From NCBI GenBank assembly GCA_007121565.1, contig SKKI01000131.1:1-11910 (forward strand): a DNA stretch of 11,910 nt, given 5' to 3'. A model generated the notes under the pieces. It saw nothing but the letters and a program-made list of their open reading frames with translations, searched no databases and was not told where the DNA came from. Of the stretch, positions 4,757-11,910 are shown piece by piece; positions within the stretch are counted from its first letter, which is position 1; each line of letters opens with the position of its first letter. The DNA is from Phycisphaerae bacterium. Its GTDB lineage: Bacteria; Planctomycetota; Phycisphaerae; Sedimentisphaerales; Anaerohalosphaeraceae. The position numbers and the translations under genes are program-made.

Positions 4757-6280
4757 ATGGTAAAAAAACTCGCTCACGAGGTGGAATTGCTTGCGGATGT
4801 GGCCAAGGCGTTTGCCGAGTCGCTGCACCTGGAAACCACTCTGGAGTCGATTCTCCACGCGCTGGAGGCGCATCTCGGGCTGGAACGGGGAGCCATTACC
4901 CTGCTCGATGCCGACAGCGAGATGATATCGCTCAAGGTGGCACACGGCTTGAGCGAGGCGTGTGCCGAACAGATCACCTATCGCGTCGGGGAGGGCATCA
5001 CCGGGCTGGTCGTGCAGAGCGGCCAGGAAGTGGTCGTGCCGGATATTCGCAAAGACCCGCGTTTCCTGGCCAAAACCGGTCAGCGCAGCCGGAGCAAGGG
5101 ACAGAAGATCGCGTTTTTCTGTGTGCCGATCAAGCTGGAGGGCAAGACCATCGGGGCCATCAGTGTGGATCGGACAGTTCGCCCAAGCGATGACTTTGAG
5201 GCGTATGTGCGTCTGCTGGAGGTGGTCGCGACGATGGTGGCCCAGGCGGTCAAGCTGAACAAACTGGTGGAAAGCGACCGCCGGCAGTTGCGCAGCCAAA
5301 ACGAACAGTTGCTGCGTGAGCTGAAAAATCGCTTCAACATCCACAATATGGTCGGCACGAGCAACGCGATGATCGAGGTGTACCGCCTGATCGAACAGGT
5401 GGCCAACAGCAACGCCACAGTGCTGATTCGCGGCGAAAGCGGCACCGGCAAGGACCTGATCGCCCACGCGATTCATTACAACAGTCATCGGGCCAAGAAA
5501 CCGTTTGTCAAAATCAACTGTACGGCCCTGCCGGAGACCCTGCTCGAAAGCGAGCTGTTCGGTCATGAAAAAGGCGCCTTTACCGGCGCGGCCGAGCGCA
5601 AGCCGGGGCGGTTTGAACTGGCCGACGGGGGAACAATTTTTCTCGATGAGATCGGCGACTTTTCGCTGAACCTTCAGGTCAAGCTGCTGCGTGTGATACA
5701 GTTTAAGGAGTTTGAGCGCGTCGGCGGCTATGAGACGATCAAGTCCAATGTGCGGATTATTGTCGCGACGAACAAGAATCTCGAAGAAGAGATCAAAAGC
5801 GGGCTGTTTCGCGAGGATCTGTATTATCGCATTAATGTGTTTCCAATCTATATGCCGCCGCTGCGTGATCGCACAAATGATGTGATGTTGCTGGCGGATT
5901 TTTTCCTCGAACGCTATGCACGGGAAAATAACAAGGCCATCAATCGCATTTCGACGCCGGCCATTGAGATGCTGACCAGTTACCACTGGCCCGGCAATGT
6001 CCGCGAGCTGGAAAACTGCATCGAGCGGGCGGTGCTGCTGTGCAACGAGGACGTGATTCGCTCGGATCACCTGCCGCCGTCGCTTCAGATGGTGCGCAAA
6101 AGCAACCAAAGCGATGCGTTATCGCTGCCGGAAAAGGTTGCCAACCTGGAGCGCGAGATGATTGTTGACGCGCTGAAAAAGACTAGCGGCTGCCAGCGCC
6201 GCGCGGCGGCGGAGCTGGGTGTGACCCAGCGGATCCTGGGCTACAAGGTCCGCAAGTATGACATCCTGAAACGCCCCTAA
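4757..6280 (+). CDS. NifA-like sigma54-dependent activator (GAF-AAA+-Fis HTH)
   Basis: 507 aa bacterial enhancer-binding protein. Residues ~15-165 form a GAF sensory domain and ~168-192 a charged, probably coiled-coil linker. Residues ~196-430 are the AAA+ domain, with Walker A GESGTGKD (226-233), the sigma54-contacting loop GAFTGA (273-278), Walker B TIFLDE (293-298) and the R-finger region [12 protein letters not shown]. The C-terminal Fis-type helix-turn-helix spans ~478-503 ([20 protein letters not shown]). The domain order matches NifA/AnfA rather than NtrC, since there is no response-regulator receiver domain. No nif genes are present. It stands directly upstream of two sigma54-type promoters of ammonium-assimilation genes, so it is inferred to activate these, with the GAF domain sensing a metabolite such as 2-oxoglutarate or responding to PII. 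A purine-rich ribosome site (GAGG, 8 nt before the ATG) supports the start. It is probably transcribed with hisHF. Confidence 0.92.
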
Positions 6281-6284
6281 GTTT

Positions 6285-6324
6285 ACATTTTTGTAAAATG
6301 AACACAAAGGCGCTACAAAATTGT
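6285..6324 (+). promoter_or_regulatory. Candidate enhancer pair (two ACA-N4-TGT dyads) for the porin-amt-PII operon
   Basis: Dyad 1 is ACATTTTTGT (6285-6294) inside the longer palindrome TTTACATTTTTGTAAA. Dyad 2 is ACAAAATTGT (6315-6324) inside CGCTACAAAATTGTAGCG. Their spacing is exactly 30 bp, about three helical turns. A further TGT at 6352-6354 continues the same 30-bp phase as a half site. They lie about 119 and 89 bp upstream of the -24 GG of the sigma54 promoter, a normal place for an enhancer. The same arrangement recurs before the glutamine synthetase gene. The binding protein is not known; the adjacent activator is the obvious candidate. Confidence 0.5.
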
Positions 6325-6338
6325 AGCGTCTTTTTATT
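6309..6338 (+). terminator. Intrinsic terminator after the sigma54 activator gene
   Basis: Stem CGCTACA (6311-6317) and TGTAGCG (6322-6328) with the loop AAAT, extendable by a G-U and a G-C pair, is followed by TTTTTATTT. It lies 28 bp after the activator stop codon and should insulate the porin-amt operon from read-through. Its stem coincides with the second ACA-N4-TGT dyad. Confidence 0.8.
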
Positions 6339-6406
6339 TCCTCAATTTTTTTGTAAGTCCTTCTGAAAAAGTGACATAAAGTTAATTTGAGGAGGTTTTT
6401 TCTGTC

Positions 6407-6422
6407 TGGTACACCGCTTGCA
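6407..6422 (+). promoter_or_regulatory. Sigma54 (-24/-12) promoter of the porin-amt-PII operon
   Basis: TGGTAC-ACCGC-TTGCA matches the sigma54 consensus TGGCAC-N5-TTGCA except for T in place of C at one position. The invariant GG (6408-6409) and GC (6420-6421) are correctly spaced by 12. Transcription would start near 6433, leaving a leader of about 80 nt before the porin ATG. It lies downstream of the proposed enhancer pair. Confidence 0.85.
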
Positions 6423-6514
6423 ATTCCCCTGTTCGTGCTTTGACCGTGAAACAGGCCTGTTCACCGAAAGCGTTAACAAACACCAACAGAAACACGTAAA
6501 TCAGGAGAACAACA

Positions 6515-7279
6515 ATGAGTATCAGGAAAAAAGCAGCAGTCGTGGGTATGGCGGTGATGTTGAGTGCAGCGGTAGTTGCCGAGCAGCATCAATGGGGTGT
6601 CGATGTCACAGCGGACTTTTTCGGCAAGTACATCTGGCGCGGTCAGAATCTGACGGACTCAACAGTCTTCCAGCCCGGTGTGGATCTGTCGTATGCGGGC
6701 CTGACCGGCTCGGTCTGGGGCAACCTGGATATGACCGATGTCAACGACGACAGGGGTAAGTTCAATGAGTGGAACTTCGGTATCGATTACAGCGACGCGG
6801 TGCCGGGCGTCGAGGGCGTGGACTTTTCCATCGGGGCGATTTATTACCGCTTCCCCAGCGCATCGCCGTCGAGTACGACCGAGCTGTACTGGGGCTTTGC
6901 CTTTGATGTATGGCTCGAGCCGTCGGTAACGGTCTATCACGATGTGGACGAGGCCAATGGCACTTATGTCGAGCTTGGCGCCGGTCACAGTTTTGAAGAC
7001 GTGTTTCACATTTCGCCGGATGTACCGGTGAGCGTGGAGATTGCCGCCAGCCTCGGATGGGCCGATTCGGATTTCAACGATTTCTATTGGGGCGTGGACA
7101 GCAGTCGGTTTACTGATTTGGCGCTGTCACTGGCTCTGCCGATGGAAATCGGCGGCTGGACCGTGGCCCCGAGCCTCAACTATGTAACCCTGCTCAGCGA
7201 CCGGCTGCGGGCGACCAATGAATATGCCTCGAAAAGTGATTACGTCTTTGCGGGCCTGAGCCTTTCAACAGGGTTTTAA
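6515..7279 (+). CDS. Putative outer-membrane porin (TorF/Gcw_chp-like)
   Basis: 254 aa. Residues 1-22 are a signal peptide (basic start, hydrophobic core, cleavage near Val-Val-Ala). The rest is made of short alternating amphipathic strands rich in Trp, Tyr and Gly, and ends in Leu-Ser-Thr-Gly-Phe. The C-terminal Phe is typical of outer-membrane beta barrels. The segment GKYIWRGQNLTDSTVFQPGV (38-57) resembles the Y-x-x-R-G-x-x-x-x-D-x-P-x-x-Q motif of the TorF/Gcw_chp family of putative porins, whose substrates are mostly unknown. It is the first gene after the sigma54 promoter, with a clear AGGAG ribosome site 7 nt before the ATG, and is followed after 39 bp by amt. The context suggests an outer-membrane channel for ammonium or another small nitrogen compound made under nitrogen limitation; this is inference. 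The family assignment is from motif memory. Confidence 0.75.
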   Translation: MSIRKKAAVVGMAVMLSAAVVAEQHQWGVDVTADFFGKYIWRGQNLTDSTVFQPGVDLSYAGLTGSVWGNLDMTDVNDDRGKFNEWNFGIDYSDAVPGVEGVDFSIGAIYYRFPSASPSSTTELYWGFAFDVWLEPSVTVYHDVDEANGTYVELGAGHSFEDVFHISPDVPVSVEIAASLGWADSDFNDFYWGVDSSRFTDLALSLALPMEIGGWTVAPSLNYVTLLSDRLRATNEYASKSDYVFAGLSLSTGF

Positions 7280-7318
7280 CGACATGACAAACGCTATATT
7301 TTTGCAAGGAATTTGACT

Positions 7319-8683
7319 ATGAAAAAATTACGAAAAAACAGACGAATCAGTCATGTAGTGTGGCTATGTATGGGTGTGCTGCTGGTCGGGGCTGCTGCGG
7401 CGGTTGCCGATGAGCCGGCTCCGGTCGGGGAGATCGAAGCGGCTGTCGAAGGGCTGCAGATGAATATGAATATTCTCTGGACCTGTATCGCGGCGTTTTT
7501 GGTGTTCTTTATGCAGGCCGGTTTTGCGATGGTCGAGTCGGGCTTTACCCGGGCCAAGAATGCCGTTAACATCATTATGAAGAACCTGATGGACTTTTCA
7601 GTCGGTTCGCTGGCGTTCTTTCTGGTGGGCTTTGGGTTGATGTTCGGTGCGACCAACGGGCTGTTCGGCACGACCCTGTTTGGCCTTAGCGGTGTCGAGC
7701 CGGGTGAAGACTGGAACTGGACGTTTTTGATTTTCCAGACGGTTTTTGCCGCGACCGCCGCGACCATCGTCTCCGGTGCCATGGCCGAACGCACCAAGTT
7801 TGTCGGCTACCTGGTGTACAGCTTCTTCATTACGCTGTTGATTTACCCGATTTTCGGCTCGTGGGCCTGGGGCAGCCTGCTTGATGGCGATGGCTGGCTG
7901 GAAGGCCTGGGCTTTCTGGATTTTGCCGGCTCGACTGTTGTGCACTCCGTTGGCGGATGGCTGGCTTTGGCCGGGGCGATTATCCTTGGCCCGCGGCTGG
8001 GTAAATATGGCCCGGACGGCAAGCCCAAGGCGATTTTGGGACACAATATGCCGCTGGCCTCACTGGGTGTGTTTATCCTGTGGTTCGGCTGGTTTGGCTT
8101 CAATCCCGGCAGCACCACGTATGCCGACGGCTGGATTGGCTATATTGCCGTCACCACCAACCTGGCTGCGGCCGGCGGTGCGGTGGCCGCCACGGCCACG
8201 TCCTGGATACTGCTGAAAAAGCCGGACGGCTCAATGGCCCTCAACGGCGCGCTGGCCGGACTGGTATCCATCACCGCGCCGTGTGACGGTGTGACACCGC
8301 TCAGCGCGATTCTGATCGGACTGGTCGGCGGGGCGCTGGTCGTTGTCAGTGTCATCTTCATCGACCGTGTGCTCAAAGTGGACGATCCGTGCGGTGCAGT
8401 CAGCGTCCACGGCGTCTGCGGGGCATGGGGAACACTGTCGGCGGGCCTGTTTAATATGGACACAGGGCTGTTCTACGGCGGCGGACTGGGCCAGTTGGGC
8501 GTACAGGCGGTCGGCGTACTGGCGGCCTTTGCATGGGCGTTCGGCTTGGGTCTGGTGTTGTTCTGGACGATCAGCAAGACCGTTGGCCTGCGGGTTAGCC
8601 CCGAAGAAGAAATGAAGGGCCTGGACATCGGCGAGCACGGGATGGAAGCGTACAGCGGATTCCAGATCTTCAGTAACATGTAA
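7319..8683 (+). CDS. amt: Ammonium transporter Amt
   Basis: 454 aa inner-membrane ammonium channel of the Amt/Mep/Rh family. Residues 1-30 are a cleavable signal peptide or first membrane segment; about 11 further hydrophobic helices follow. The twin pore histidines are H209 ([10 protein letters not shown]) and H364 ([12 protein letters not shown]). The Phe gate region is [20 protein letters not shown] (139-158), and [11 protein letters not shown] (255-265) is also typical. The C-terminal tail [17 protein letters not shown] is the conserved cytoplasmic domain that couples to PII proteins. The ATG at 7319 was chosen because AAGGA (7306-7310) sits 8 nt upstream; an in-frame TTG two codons earlier is less likely. 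It is the middle gene of the porin-amt-PII operon; the PII gene begins 41 bp downstream, the usual amt-glnK linkage. Confidence 0.97.
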
Positions 8684-8724
8684 AAATAAAATCGCAAACA
8701 GATATCAGAAATGTGAGGATTCAA

Positions 8725-9066
8725 ATGAAACTGATTATAGCGTATATTCAGCCGCATAAGCTGGACGATGTGAAAAAGGCCCTGACCGAGGCCAAGGTCA
8801 GCAAAATGTCCGTGACCAACTCGCTGGGCTGCGGCGAGCAGATGGGATATGAAGAAAGTTACCGCGGGATTCGCTTTGAGGTCAACCTGCTCAAGAAAGT
8901 GCGGCTCGAGATCGCGGTCAACGAGGATTATCTCCAGCACGCCGTCGATGCGATTATCGCCGGGGCCCGGACCGGCGAGATCGGTGACGGCAAGATATTT
9001 ATCCTCGATCTGGCCGACTGTATCCGGATTCGCACCGGCGCCCACGGCGTCAAAGCGATCGGGTAG
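8725..9066 (+). CDS. glnK: PII nitrogen-regulatory protein (GlnK/GlnB family), Phe at position 51
   Basis: 113 aa. PII trimers bind ATP/ADP and 2-oxoglutarate and control targets including Amt, which this gene adjoins. Visible ligand residues are Q39, K58, G87-D88-G89-K90 and R101/R103 in IRIRTG. The C-terminal signature [14 protein letters not shown] is intact. The T-loop reads [13 protein letters not shown]: Tyr46 is present, but residue 51, uridylylated in E. coli, is Phe (codon TTT at 8875-8877), and residue 49, a phosphoserine in cyanobacteria, is Ile. Known covalent control is therefore unlikely, and regulation is probably by ligand binding only. The start at 8725 fits the family N-terminus ([16 protein letters not shown]) and the GAGGA ribosome site 5 nt upstream. 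The symbol glnK rests on amt linkage. Confidence 0.95.
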
Positions 9067-9089
9067 CACGGCAGAAAGTGCGAAAAATG

Positions 9090-9129
9090 ACAATTTTGTT
9101 AAAAATAGTTTGATTTGCTACAAATTTGT
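9090..9129 (+). promoter_or_regulatory. Candidate enhancer pair (two ACA-N4-TGT dyads) for glutamine synthetase III
   Basis: The dyads ACAATTTTGT (9090-9099) and ACAAATTTGT (9120-9129) lie exactly 30 bp apart, the same spacing as upstream of the porin-amt operon. They are about 128 and 98 bp upstream of the -24 GG of the glutamine synthetase sigma54 promoter. The second shares GCTACAAA with dyad 2 of the other promoter (GCTACAAAATTGT there, GCTACAAATTTGT here). AT-rich DNA makes single hits cheap, but the repeated paired geometry is harder to get by chance. Confidence 0.5.
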
Positions 9130-9220: not shown

Positions 9221-9236
9221 TGGCACAATGCTTGCA
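9221..9236 (+). promoter_or_regulatory. Sigma54 (-24/-12) promoter of glutamine synthetase III
   Basis: TGGCAC-AATGC-TTGCA is a perfect match to the sigma54 core consensus, with GG at 9222-9223 and GC at 9234-9235. The expected start is near 9247, about 65 nt before the chosen ATG. It shows that glutamine synthetase has its own sigma54-controlled transcript separate from the amt operon. Confidence 0.92.
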
Positions 9237-9311: not shown

Positions 9312-11405
9312 ATGGACAGTCAGGTCAAGTTAAGTGATGTGTATGGGGTAAACGTGTTCAATGACGCAGTTATGCGTCAGCGTCTGCCCAAAACGATTTA
9401 TAAGGAATTCGTCAAGGTCCGCAACGGCAGCATAGAAATGACCCAGGCGATCGCCGATGTGCTGGCCGGGGCAATGAAAGACTGGGCGCTGGAACACGGG
9501 GCGACACACTATACCCACTGGTTTCAGCCGATGACCGGGTTTACAGCCGAAAAGCACGACTCATTCATCTCGCCCACGCCGGACGGCAGAACCATCCTCG
9601 AGTTCAGCGGCAGCGAGCTGATCAAGGGCGAGCCGGACGCGTCGTCGTTTCCCTCGGGCGGTTTACGGGTGACCTTTGAGGCCCGCGGCTATACGGCCTG
9701 GGACTGTACCTCGCCGGTCTTTATCAAGGGCAAAACGCTGTATATTCCCTCGGCCTTCTGCTCTTATACGGGCGAGGCGCTGGATAAGAAGACGCCGCTG
9801 CTGCGGTCGATGGAAACGCTGAACAAACAGGCGATGCGTGTGCTGCGGGCCCTGGGCAATGGCGATGTGTCCAGCGTGACCTCGACCCTCGGGCCGGAGC
9901 AGGAATACTTCCTGGTCGATCGCCGCTTTTTTGAAAAGCGGATGGATTTGATGCTGGCCGGGCGTACCCTGTTTGGCGCGCCCTCGCCGCGGGGCCAGGA
10001 GATGGAAGATCACTACTTCGGCGCGCTGCATGAGCGGGTTTCGGCCTTTATGAACGACGTCAATTTTGAATTGTGGCAACTGGGTGTCTCGGCCAAAACC
10101 CAGCACAACGAAGTGGCGCCGGCCCAATATGAAATCGCGCCGATCTTTACGACCGTCAACGTGGCGACCGATCATAATCAGATTACGATGGAAACGCTGC
10201 AGAAGGTCGCCCGTCGGCACGACTTTGTGTGTCTGCTGCATGAAAAACCGTTTGCCGGGGTCAACGGTTCGGGCAAGCACAACAACTGGTCGCTGGTGAC
10301 CGACACCGGCAACAACCTGCTCGATCCGGGCAACACACCGCATGATAATATGCTGTTTCTGGTGTTCTTGTGTGCGGTCATTCGGGCGGTGGATAAATAC
10401 GCTCACCTGCTGCGTGCGTCCGTGGCCAACCCGGGCAACGAACACCGCCTCGGGGCCAACGAAGCGCCGCCGGCGATCATCTCGATCTTTCTGGGCGACC
10501 AGTTGACCGATATTTTTGAGCAGCTTGCCGCCGGCGGCGCCAAGACGAGCCAACAGGGCGGCCAGCTCAAACTGGGCATCTCGACCCTGCCGCCGCTGCC
10601 GAAGGACTGCACCGACCGTAACCGAACCAGTCCGTTCGCGTTTACCGGCAACAAGTTCGAGTTTCGGATGGTCGGCTCCAGCCAGTCCACGTCGGGCCCG
10701 TGTTTTGTGCTCAATACGATTGTCGCCGATGTGCTGATGGAGATTGCCGACGAGCTGGAAAAGAGCAAGGACGTCAAGGCCGACGCCCAGAAAGTGCTCA
10801 AAAAAATTGCCACCGACCACGCGCGGATTATCTTCAACGGCGACAACTATTCGGACGACTGGGTCAAAGAGGCCCACAAGCGCGGGCTGTCGAATATCGC
10901 CTCCGCCGTCGATGCGCTGGAGACGATTCTCGAAAAAGAGAATATTGATGTCTTCAAGCGTCATAAAGTGCTGAGCAAACACGAGCTGCACGCTCGCACC
11001 GAGATCTTGCTTGAGAATTACAGCAAGACGCTCAACATCGAAGCCGGGGCGACCTTGAGTATGGCCAAGCGTCAGATTCTGCCGGCATGCATCGCCTATT
11101 CGACGAAACTGGCCGAGGCAGTCAATGGCCTGACCGCCGCCGATATCCGACCAGCCGTACAGAAACGTGAACTGGAAAAGGTCAACAGCCTGATCGAAGA
11201 CCTCAGCAGTGCCATTGAGGCGCTAGACAAAGCGGTCGGCAAGGCCAGAATGATCGAAAAGCCCGGCGACCAGGCCCGATGCTTCAAAGAAGACGTCGTG
11301 CCGGCGATGGCCGAGGTCCGAACCGCCGCCGACACGCTCGAGATGACGGTCGATGCCGAGTTGTGGCCGTTGCCGGGGTATGTGGAGATGTTGTTTTTGC
11401 GATAA
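9312..11405 (+). CDS. glnN: Glutamine synthetase type III (GSIII, GlnN)
   Basis: 697 aa, the length of the large GSIII class rather than the ~450-470 aa GSI. It makes glutamine from glutamate, ammonia and ATP in the cytoplasm. The N-terminal [18 protein letters not shown] and the [20 protein letters not shown] segment are GSIII-specific in my recollection. Active-site motifs are GPEQEYF (194-200, metal-binding Glu), [10 protein letters not shown] (266-275), [10 protein letters not shown] (318-327, the ATP/glutamate-binding KHNNW loop) and [13 protein letters not shown] (376-388). The C-terminal third is the helical extension of the class. The start at 9312 is favoured by CAGGAG (9298-9303) 8 nt upstream; an in-frame TTG at 9279 precedes that site and is unlikely. 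The Tyr adenylylation site of GSI-beta is not part of this class. It works with the adjacent glutamate synthase. Confidence 0.97.
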
Positions 11406-11610: not shown

Positions 11611-11910
11611 ATGCCATTGATGCCCAACAATCAGGGGTTCTATGAGTCGCGGCGGGAACACGACGCCTGCGGGATCGGGGCGGTTGTCAATATTTCCGGC
11701 GTGCGCGACCATTCTATCATTAATTATGGCAAGCAGATTTTGCTGAACCTGCACCATCGCGGAGCCGCTGGAGCGGACGATGTGACCGGCGACGGGGCGG
11801 GTATATTGACGCAGATTCCCCATCCGTTTATTAGTGCTGAAGCTAAGCGGCTGGGGCTGGATCTTGCGGATCCGGGTCAGTATGGCGCGGGGATGGTGTT
11901 TCTGCCGCCC
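11611..11910 (+). CDS. gltB: Glutamate synthase large subunit GltB (5' part, cut by window end)
   Basis: The first 100 codons are present and the gene continues past the window. The product transfers the glutamine amide nitrogen to 2-oxoglutarate, completing the GS-GOGAT cycle with GSIII upstream. The N-terminal class II glutaminase domain is clear: REHDACGIG carries the nucleophile Cys20, so a 19-residue propeptide would be cleaved to expose it. HHRGA (52-56) and TGDGAGILTQIPH (62-74) are typical conserved blocks. The ATG at 11611 is supported by AGGA (11597-11600) 10 nt upstream; a second Met three codons later is less well placed. The expected full length is about 1500 aa. Whether electrons come from NADPH or ferredoxin cannot be told from this fragment. 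Confidence 0.95.
   Translation, partial: MPLMPNNQGFYESRREHDACGIGAVVNISGVRDHSIINYGKQILLNLHHRGAAGADDVTGDGAGILTQIPHPFISAEAKRLGLDLADPGQYGAGMVFLPP

What the first reader, a model, noticed from the sequence alone, without database searches (positions are those of the whole stretch)
6285..9129. Two sigma54 promoters share paired ACA-N4-TGT dyads exactly 30 bp apart
Upstream of the porin-amt-PII operon the dyads start at 6285 and 6315; upstream of glnN they start at 9090 and 9120. Each pair is spaced 30 bp, about three helical turns, and lies roughly 90-130 bp before the -24 element. A third TGT at 6352 keeps the same phase in the first region. This differs from the NifA site TGT-N10-ACA and the NtrC site, though the neighbouring activator is NifA-like. 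It may be a distinct enhancer for a nitrogen regulon.
Basis: partly seen in the sequence, partly recalled or inferred. Interest (0 to 1): 0.7.

Follow-up and report, generated by a model that had tools for sequence, protein, structure and literature searches.

The report
Paired switch sites for nitrogen genes
Two short mirror-image DNA sites, usually 29 to 31 letters apart, sit in front of nitrogen-uptake genes in many planctomycete bacteria and are most likely the landing pads of a NifA-like switch protein encoded next door, a known style of control put to a use for which I found no description.

Summary
In detail: ACA-N4-TGT dyads at 6285/6315 and 9090/9120, 30 bp apart, before sigma54 elements at 6407 and 9221. 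They are not AT-rich noise. In 198 genomes of the class, 57 of 61 A/T-core pairs from a 16-46 bp search are spaced 29-31. Of 86 pairs from 45 genomes, 58 have a -24/-12 element at 60-135 bp, about 3% expected, nearly all before amt, porin-amt-PII, glnN, glnA or gltB. Pairs track a NifA-family activator with one HTH type: 30 of 56 genomes with it, 3 of 142 others. Most likely this is an enhancer of a nitrogen-assimilation regulon bound by the neighbouring activator; binding is inferred. Unrelated response regulators also use single ACA-N4-TGT dyads, a live rival. Pairs just upstream of activator-family genes are mostly 29 bp apart (13 of 16, against 2 of 37 enhancers, main group), suggesting autoregulation. 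The 'third TGT' is not conserved. New variant of a known kind.

The parts
4757..6280 (+). NifA-family sigma54 activator gene (GAF, AAA+ with GAFTGA, C-terminal helix-turn-helix)
   Evidence: Pfam GAF, Sigma54_activat, HTH_8; NCBIfam nifA model 544.2 bits, cut-off 528.85, best stretch residues 9-440; GAFTGA at residue 279
6285..6294 (.). distal dyad of the porin-amt-PII promoter (ACATTTTTGT; TAC-N6-GTA at 6284-6295)
6315..6324 (.). proximal dyad of the porin-amt-PII promoter (ACAAAATTGT; TAC-N6-GTA at 6314-6325)
6306..6333 (+). stem-loop with T tail around the proximal dyad, probable terminator of the activator gene
   Evidence: 12 pairs, 5 G-C; -14.9 kcal/mol for its 26-nt core
6407..6422 (+). 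sigma54 -24/-12 element TGGTACACCGCTTGCA
   Evidence: 1 mismatch; 82 bp after the pair end
6515..7279 (+). putative porin gene, first gene of the amt operon
   Evidence: TorF-like porin model below its cut-off (33 of 47 bits)
7319..8683 (+). ammonium transporter gene (amt)
   Evidence: TIGR00836, 446.9 bits, cut-off 343.3
8725..9066 (+). PII protein gene
   Evidence: PF00543
9090..9099 (.). distal dyad of the glnN promoter (ACAATTTTGT)
9120..9129 (.). proximal dyad of the glnN promoter (ACAAATTTGT)
9221..9236 (+). sigma54 -24/-12 element TGGCACAATGCTTGCA
   Evidence: 0 mismatches; 91 bp after the pair end
9312..11405 (+). type III glutamine synthetase gene (glnN)
   Evidence: GSIII_N, Gln-synt_C

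Best explanation
The dyad pairs are upstream activating sites (enhancers) of a nitrogen-assimilation regulon. A one-component NifA-family activator, encoded at 4757-6280, binds each TACA-W4-TGTA-like palindrome as a dimer; two dimers about three helical turns apart on one face of the DNA seed the active AAA+ oligomer, which loops to sigma54 polymerase at the -24/-12 element some 80-90 bp downstream and opens the promoter. Targets are ammonium uptake and assimilation genes (porin-amt-PII and glnN here; also glnA, further amt genes, PII and gltB in relatives). Shown: the sites, their conservation, the fixed spacing, coupling to -24/-12 elements, the target genes, co-occurrence with the activator. 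Inferred: physical binding, dimer and oligomer steps, activation under nitrogen limitation, control of the GAF domain by PII or another nitrogen signal. In many relatives a version mostly spaced 29 bp lies just upstream of the activator gene, where it probably mediates negative autoregulation (inferred).
For: Spacing: in 59 relatives 50 of 52 listed A/T-core pairs are spaced 29-31; the 60 other listed dyad pairs spread over 17-46, 13 of them at 29-31 (listing cut short). In 198 class genomes 57 of 61; the backwards control gave 1 match there. Promoter coupling: 58 of 86 unique pairs have a -24/-12 element at 60-135 bp, 3% expected. Orthologous promoters, at most one mismatch in twelve: 13 of 30 glnN loci and 16 of 27 activator-downstream loci have a pair at 29-31 bp, against 0.17 and 0.67 on average for six control spacing sets; a -24/-12 element is present in 11 of those 13 and 15 of those 16, and in 1 of 17 and 0 of 11 loci without the pair. 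From the promoter side: 23 of 31 sigma54 sites in loci of named close homologues have a pair at 29-31 bp, 2 at the 18 other spacings of 20-40; 10 of 20 against 1 in distant orthologues without an exact pair; 0 of 17 (1 elsewhere) near unrelated activators. Targets of the 58: nearest known gene amt 20, porin 16, glnN 13, PII 1, gltB 1, none 7; of these 7, five precede glnA-like genes (3 confirmed; 2 by eye), one asrA, one is an activator-proximal pair with a weak opposite-strand element. 0 of 43 genomes whose homologue aligns only to before residue 495 have pairs (two of these, G076 and G129, are cut by contig ends); ten of them aligned all have an NRNTLNKK recognition helix.
Against: No binding or expression data. 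26 of 56 genomes with an activator aligned through the HTH lack an exact A/T-core pair; six of these (G038, G072, G077, G097, G103, G109) have a different helix, TERLMGLR. Three genomes have pairs but no activator at E <= 1e-125: G046 (found in two pieces, one with a stop inside), G013 and G163 (unexplained). Eleven of 86 pairs have neither a -24/-12 element in range nor an activator start; 7 of the 11 precede amt or glnN. 17 of 30 glnN loci and 11 of 27 activator-downstream loci have no pair, so the regulon changes among relatives. The glnN dyads in the window lack the flanking T/A (both sides at 9090, one side at 9120). Same-genus genomes G001-G003 have no activator at E <= 1e-100 and G002's glnN has neither pair nor -24/-12. 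Single ACA-N4-TGT dyads are used by unrelated response regulators. Counts do not allow for shared ancestry; several loci appear to be the same contigs as the G-handle genomes.
Confidence: 0.78

Rival explanations
1. The pairs are real regulatory sites but are bound by another factor, for instance an OmpR-type response regulator (BceR, GraR and CopR types use such dyads) or a BlaI/CopY-type repressor (recalled), which tunes these promoters; the activator binds elsewhere.
For: Published single dyads: TNACA-N4-TGTAA with an AT-rich centre for BceAB-linked response regulators (PMC9020739), ACAAATTTGT for GraR (PMC3128592), TGACA-N4-TGTCA for CopR/CusR (PMC12428095), passages only. 17 pairs lie just upstream of activator-family genes without sigma54.
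Against: The pairs occur at set distances before -24/-12 elements, track the HTH type of this activator, and resemble sites of NifA-family activators, also paired. I did not test co-occurrence with any response regulator.
Confidence: 0.14
2. Chance palindromes in AT-rich spacers, or the stems of transcription terminators, without a regulatory role.
For: Spacers are 62-65% A+T; dyad 6315 lies in a terminator-like stem, and two relatives (G025, G027) have the same overlap.
Against: 0 of 20,000 shuffles give pairs in both spacers; spacing sharply peaked in other genomes; no terminator-like site was listed at the glnN pair; 9 of 12 activator-downstream proximal dyads fold no better than -5 kcal/mol.
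Confidence: 0.02
3. An ordinary NifA or NtrC enhancer of the textbook sequence, misread by the first reader.
For: The activator passes NCBI's nifA equivalog cut-off (544.2 against 528.85 bits) and its best full-length solved relative is a Nif-specific regulatory protein (9qq6).
Against: No TGT-N10-ACA in either spacer, no NtrC-type dyad; nifH in only 2 of 59 genomes searched; the best stretch of the nifA match stops at residue 440, before the HTH.
Confidence: 0.04

Closest known systems
AnfA enhancer of the anfH promoter, TAC-N6-GTA (Rhodobacter capsulatus and other alphaproteobacteria; PMC7294313)
   Same: Two palindromic sites upstream of a sigma54 promoter, activator of GAF-AAA+-HTH type encoded just upstream with a terminator between (passages); both dyads at 6284-6325 fit TAC-N6-GTA.
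   Different: Target there is Fe-nitrogenase, here ammonium assimilation; the two glnN dyads do not fit the outer letters; AnfA spacing is in a figure that is not held, so not compared; AnfA is reported to have a cysteine motif in its GAF domain, here only one GAF cysteine (C128) is conserved.
VnfA1 enhancer GT(T/A)C-N6-GTAC (Azotobacter vinelandii; PMC9542535)
   Same: Most promoters hold two motifs at similar spacing, taken as cooperative binding by a NifA-family activator (passage).
   Different: Different half-site flank, vanadium-nitrogenase regulon; its spacing value was not seen.
NifA enhancer TGT-N10-ACA
   Same: Activator architecture and family model; typically within 150 bp of the start site (PMC7294313 passage).
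   Different: Half sites face the other way and are 10, not 4, apart; no such site in either spacer.
Single dyads of BceR-, GraR- and CopR-type response regulators (PMC9020739, PMC3128592, PMC12428095)
   Same: ACA-N4-TGT core, AT-rich centre in the BceR and GraR cases; 9120 (ACAAATTTGT) equals the GraR palindrome.
   Different: Other protein family; in the passages seen, no fixed 30-bp pairing or sigma54 element is mentioned.
NtrC regulon of Pseudomonadota (recalled)
   Same: Physiological role: ammonium uptake, glutamine synthetase; autoregulation.
   Different: No receiver domain found here, different site and HTH.

Membership tests
sigma54 enhancer (upstream activating site) | lies upstream of a -24/-12 element | tested here: met
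   both window pairs; 58 of 86 pairs in the set, 3% expected
sigma54 enhancer (upstream activating site) | bound by an AAA+ activator and needed for activation | not testable with these tools
   needs gel shift and reporter assays
AnfA-type site (TAC-N6-GTA) | dyad TAC-N6-GTA | tested here: inconclusive
   2 of 4 window dyads fit; the glnN dyads do not; T before ACA in 76% of 172 dyads read on both strands, inflated because one flanking T was part of the search pattern
AnfA/VnfA activator | conserved cysteine motif in the GAF domain | tested here: inconclusive
   only C128 is conserved in the GAF domain over 57 close and 40 distant rows, some genomes twice; the exact AnfA/VnfA motif was not seen
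AnfA/VnfA activator | regulates an alternative nitrogenase | tested here: not met
   targets are ammonium genes; nifH-family match in 2 of 59 genomes
NifA (equivalog) | score over TIGR01817 cut-off | tested here: met
   544.2 against 528.85 bits
NifA (equivalog) | works on TGT-N10-ACA sites and nif genes | tested here: not met
   no such site in the spacers; no nifH match at E <= 1e-60 in 57 of 59 genomes, the own one (78% complete) among them
NtrC | receiver domain and NtrC-type HTH and site | tested here: not met
   GAF instead of receiver; no site in the spacers; ntrC model 357.7 of 558.6 bits

The most novel reading that the evidence does not exclude
A spacing code: one NifA-family protein is the master nitrogen-assimilation regulator of a large part of the Phycisphaerae; at pairs spaced about 30 bp and set in helical steps (about 80, 91, 103, 124 bp) before a sigma54 promoter it activates, while at pairs spaced 29 bp over its own sigma70 promoter it represses, and such proteins, auto-named NifA in organisms without nifH, are an AnfA/VnfA-like branch serving general nitrogen control.
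Probability: 0.35. Interest if true: 0.72.

Novelty: new variant of a known kind. Interest (0 to 1): 0.6.

Why it matters
It gives a testable nitrogen-control circuit for planctomycetes; among the papers listed by my searches of an open-access library (the last three lists were capped) I saw none that describes one. It would show a NifA-family activator, usually tied to nitrogen fixation, running ammonium assimilation in bacteria without nifH, warn that the automatic name NifA misleads for the window's protein, and provide 58 natural promoters in which enhancer spacing and helical phase can be compared.

Tried and rejected
Chance or AT-rich background: rejected by shuffles and spacing histograms. 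Terminator only: rejected; stem plus T tail is clear in 3 of 12 activator-downstream pairs checked (own, G025, G027), G030 is doubtful and G029 looks alike by eye. Third in-phase site: not conserved. Textbook NifA and NtrC sites: absent from the spacers. Helical phasing of the enhancer-to-promoter distance: R = 0.58 at 10.5 bp for 57 distances (one weak outlier at 109 bp dropped), 0 of 5000 jittered sets as high at each of three jitter widths; kept as suggestive only, since the best period is 11.3 and the two main modes partly follow lineage (about 80 bp in distant, 91 bp in close orthologues). A -10 hexamer after the proximal dyad of activator-gene pairs: 6 of 17 against 7 of 58 at 5 of 6 matches (p 0.06), 15 of 17 against 23 of 58 at 4 of 6 (p 0.0006); weak. 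In the 29-bp count (13 of 16 against 2 of 37) the 16 include two near-identical G039 contigs, two overlapping pairs of one triple in G030 and the paralogue in G026; one of the 2 enhancers spaced 29 is the activator-proximal pair of G029. Dropped before counts: reverse-strand duplicates; pairs with other cores or spacings before fetching flanks; two short loci (L040, L057). Group III loci had no -24/-12 site of at least 10 of 11 to test. Aquifex Nlh1/Nlh2: the listing held one relevant review, not read for a binding site. On re-check I read passages of the three papers listed and ran; because of the former I lowered the main confidence from 0.82 to 0.78 and raised the other-factor rival from 0.10 to 0.14.
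Full report
What is in the window. The ORF list shows hisH- and hisF-like genes (names recalled, not scanned), then a sigma54 activator (4757-6280: GAF, AAA+, HTH), a putative porin (6515-7279), amt (7319-8683), PII (8725-9066) and type III glutamine synthetase glnN (9312-11405). The pair ends lie 82 and 91 bp before the TGG of the -24 element.

Is it more than chance? In 20,000 dinucleotide shuffles of the two spacers no trial gave a pair (spacing 16-46) in both. In the own genome (1.72 Mb held, 78% complete) the only two perfect pairs at exactly 30 bp are these two. A search of 59 relatives, own included, for dyad pairs at spacings 16-46 gave 231 hits on both strands against 97 for the backwards control. 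Of 112 listed non-redundant hits (the listing was cut), 52 have all-A/T cores in both dyads, and 50 of these are spaced 29 (15), 30 (26) or 31 (9); the other 60 are spread over 17-46 with 13 at 29-31. In 198 genomes drawn from the class the A/T-core pattern hits 34 genomes and the control gives one match; 57 of 61 non-redundant pairs are at 29 (20), 30 (29) or 31 (8). In the phylum draw (246 genomes, some of them the same; 14 match; control 3 matches) the 14 pairs from genomes outside the class are at 29 (2), 30 (5), 32 (2), and 20, 21, 23, 34, 46 (one each). One of three Acidobacteria loci with a full-length homologue of the activator has a 31-bp pair between amt and the activator gene (L249).

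What do the pairs precede? I fetched flanks of A/T-core pairs at 29-31 bp and found 86 unique pairs in 45 genomes. 58 have a -24/-12 element (at least 9 of 11 matches, with GG and GC) 60-135 bp downstream in one orientation, where the background rate predicts about 3%; 17 of the rest lie upstream of a gene of the activator family (15-98 bp from the homology start; one is a nif-linked paralogue in G026); 11 are neither, 7 of them before amt or glnN. Nearest known genes for the 58: amt 20, porin 16, glnN 13, PII 1, gltB 1, none 7. Of these seven, three are confirmed GlnA and one AsrA, two look like GlnA by eye, and one is an activator-proximal pair with a weak opposite-strand element. The distances cluster at 78-83, 86-94, 102-104 and 124 bp, with single values at 69, 76 and 109; this fits helical steps, though lineage explains part of it.

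Conservation at orthologous promoters, misses included. With at most one mismatch in twelve, 13 of 30 glnN loci (the window's among them) have a pair at 29-31 bp within 500 bp upstream, against an average of 0.17 loci for six sets of three control spacings. A -24/-12 element is present in 11 of these 13 and in 1 of the 17 without a pair. Downstream of the activator gene 16 of 27 loci have a pair (control 0.67); 15 of these 16 and 0 of the other 11 have a -24/-12 element. So pair and promoter are kept or lost together, and a good part of the glnN genes in the family is outside this control. In a further test, among good -24/-12 sites (at least 10 of 11) in loci L180-L299, 23 of 31 in loci of named close relatives (record titles Phycisphaerae, Sedimentisphaerales, Anaerohalosphaeraceae and broader names; several are probably the same contigs as G-handle genomes) have a pair at 29-31 bp and 2 at the 18 other spacings between 20 and 40; for distant orthologues without an exact pair it is 10 of 20 against 1, for six further distant loci 1 of 3, for loci of unrelated activators 0 of 17 against 1.

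Which protein? The activator gene adjoins the amt operon in the window and many relatives. Across 198 genomes, 56 have a homologue (E <= 1e-125) whose alignment runs through the HTH; 30 of these have pairs. Of the other 142, 3 do (p 7.5e-17, without correction for ancestry). Forty-three of the 142 have a homologue at that E-value whose alignment ends before residue 495 (two of them cut by contig ends), and none has a pair. In ten of these that I aligned, the recognition helix is of the NRNTLNKK kind, against mostly TxRxxxYK in the pair-bearing groups (that the former is NtrC-like is recalled). Among the 26 genomes with an aligned HTH but no exact pair, six have a third kind, TERLMGLR.

Autoregulation. 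They lack sigma54 elements, and some run into a -10-like hexamer (weak), as a repressor site would. One relative (G030) has three dyads in a row there. In the window there is no such pair: the activator follows hisF by 38 bp and no dyad lies between.

How it probably works. Oligomer formation, binding to the upstream site, DNA bending and contact with sigma54 polymerase are described for NifA (review passages, PMC9866876) and are inferred here. The signal is unknown. A PII gene sits in the target operon, and PII control of the NifA-family activator AnfA has been reported (PMC12093980, abstract and outline only), so GAF-PII control is a reasonable guess.

Comparison. PMC7294313 (abstract, passages and section 3.2) defines the AnfA site as TAC-N6-GTA, with two sites before anfH, both needed for full activity, and a terminator of anfA just upstream: the same layout as 6280-6422. 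The window's only two TAC-N6-GTA matches are the dyads at 6284 and 6314. PMC9542535 (passages) reports VnfA1 motifs GT(T/A)C-N6-GTAC, mostly two per promoter at similar spacing. Single dyads of the same core are published for unrelated response regulators: TNACA-N4-TGTAA with AT-rich centre (PMC9020739), ACAAATTTGT for GraR (PMC3128592), TGACA-N4-TGTCA for CopR/CusR (PMC12428095), passages only. So the kind of site is known; its use for ammonium assimilation in Phycisphaerae, the tight spacing and the 29/30 split did not turn up in my searches (open-access library, several lists capped, most papers seen only as listings). The activator passes the NifA equivalog cut-off, yet the best stretch stops before the HTH, and nifH is found in 2 of 59 genomes, so the automatic name is probably misleading.

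Limits. Counts are not independent across related genomes. Exact A/T-core patterns miss degenerate sites. The glnN dyads in the window deviate in the flanks. Same-genus genomes G001-G003 lack the activator at E <= 1e-100, and G002's glnN has neither pair nor -24/-12 element.

Noticed in passing
window 6306-6333; G025 and G027 equivalents (L154, L161): The proximal enhancer dyad doubles as the core of the activator gene's terminator-like stem, so one palindrome may serve in DNA and RNA.
   Followed up: partly
L126 (G026:C7) 294-333, 380-1864, 1968-2203: A second NifA-like gene next to nifH has a 30-bp pair 41 bp upstream of its homology start, while the nifH promoter (CGGCACACTGTTTGCA at 2203) has instead a repeated TGACAAAnATTTCCGAA at 1968 and 2059: perhaps a cascade from the general regulator to a nif-specific one with its own site.
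   Followed up: partly
L200-L209 (ten genomes of families f11, f13, f20, f22): Homologues of the activator keep GAF and AAA+ but carry a different HTH (NRNTLNKK type) after a longer linker, as if the DNA-binding end had been exchanged; these ten genomes have no exact pair.
   Followed up: partly
L181-L184, L186, L189 (G097, G038, G077, G072, G103, G109): A third recognition helix, TERLMGLR, or near it, in activator orthologues of genomes without an exact pair; one of them (L182) has a pair with one mismatch.
   Followed up: no
L100 (G134:C21) pair at 2502, minus strand: A 31-bp pair and a perfect -24/-12 element precede asrA (anaerobic sulfite reductase subunit A), an unexpected target.
   Followed up: no
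L249 pair at 2735: An Acidobacteria contig has the same paired site between amt and an activator homologue, so the system may reach beyond Planctomycetota.
   Followed up: no
L155 (G025:C237) pair at 2502: A 30-bp pair lies 111 bp before the homology start of another activator-like gene (35% identical), in one of the two relatives with nifH.
   Followed up: no
G001-G003 (same genus); L007: The nearest relatives held lack the activator at E <= 1e-100, and G002's glnN has neither pair nor -24/-12 element, which suggests joint loss.
   Followed up: partly
window 11611-11910: The start of a glutamate synthase-like gene (name recalled) lies downstream without a dyad before it, although the homologous gene in G037 has a 31-bp pair and -24/-12 element (L133).
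   Followed up: no
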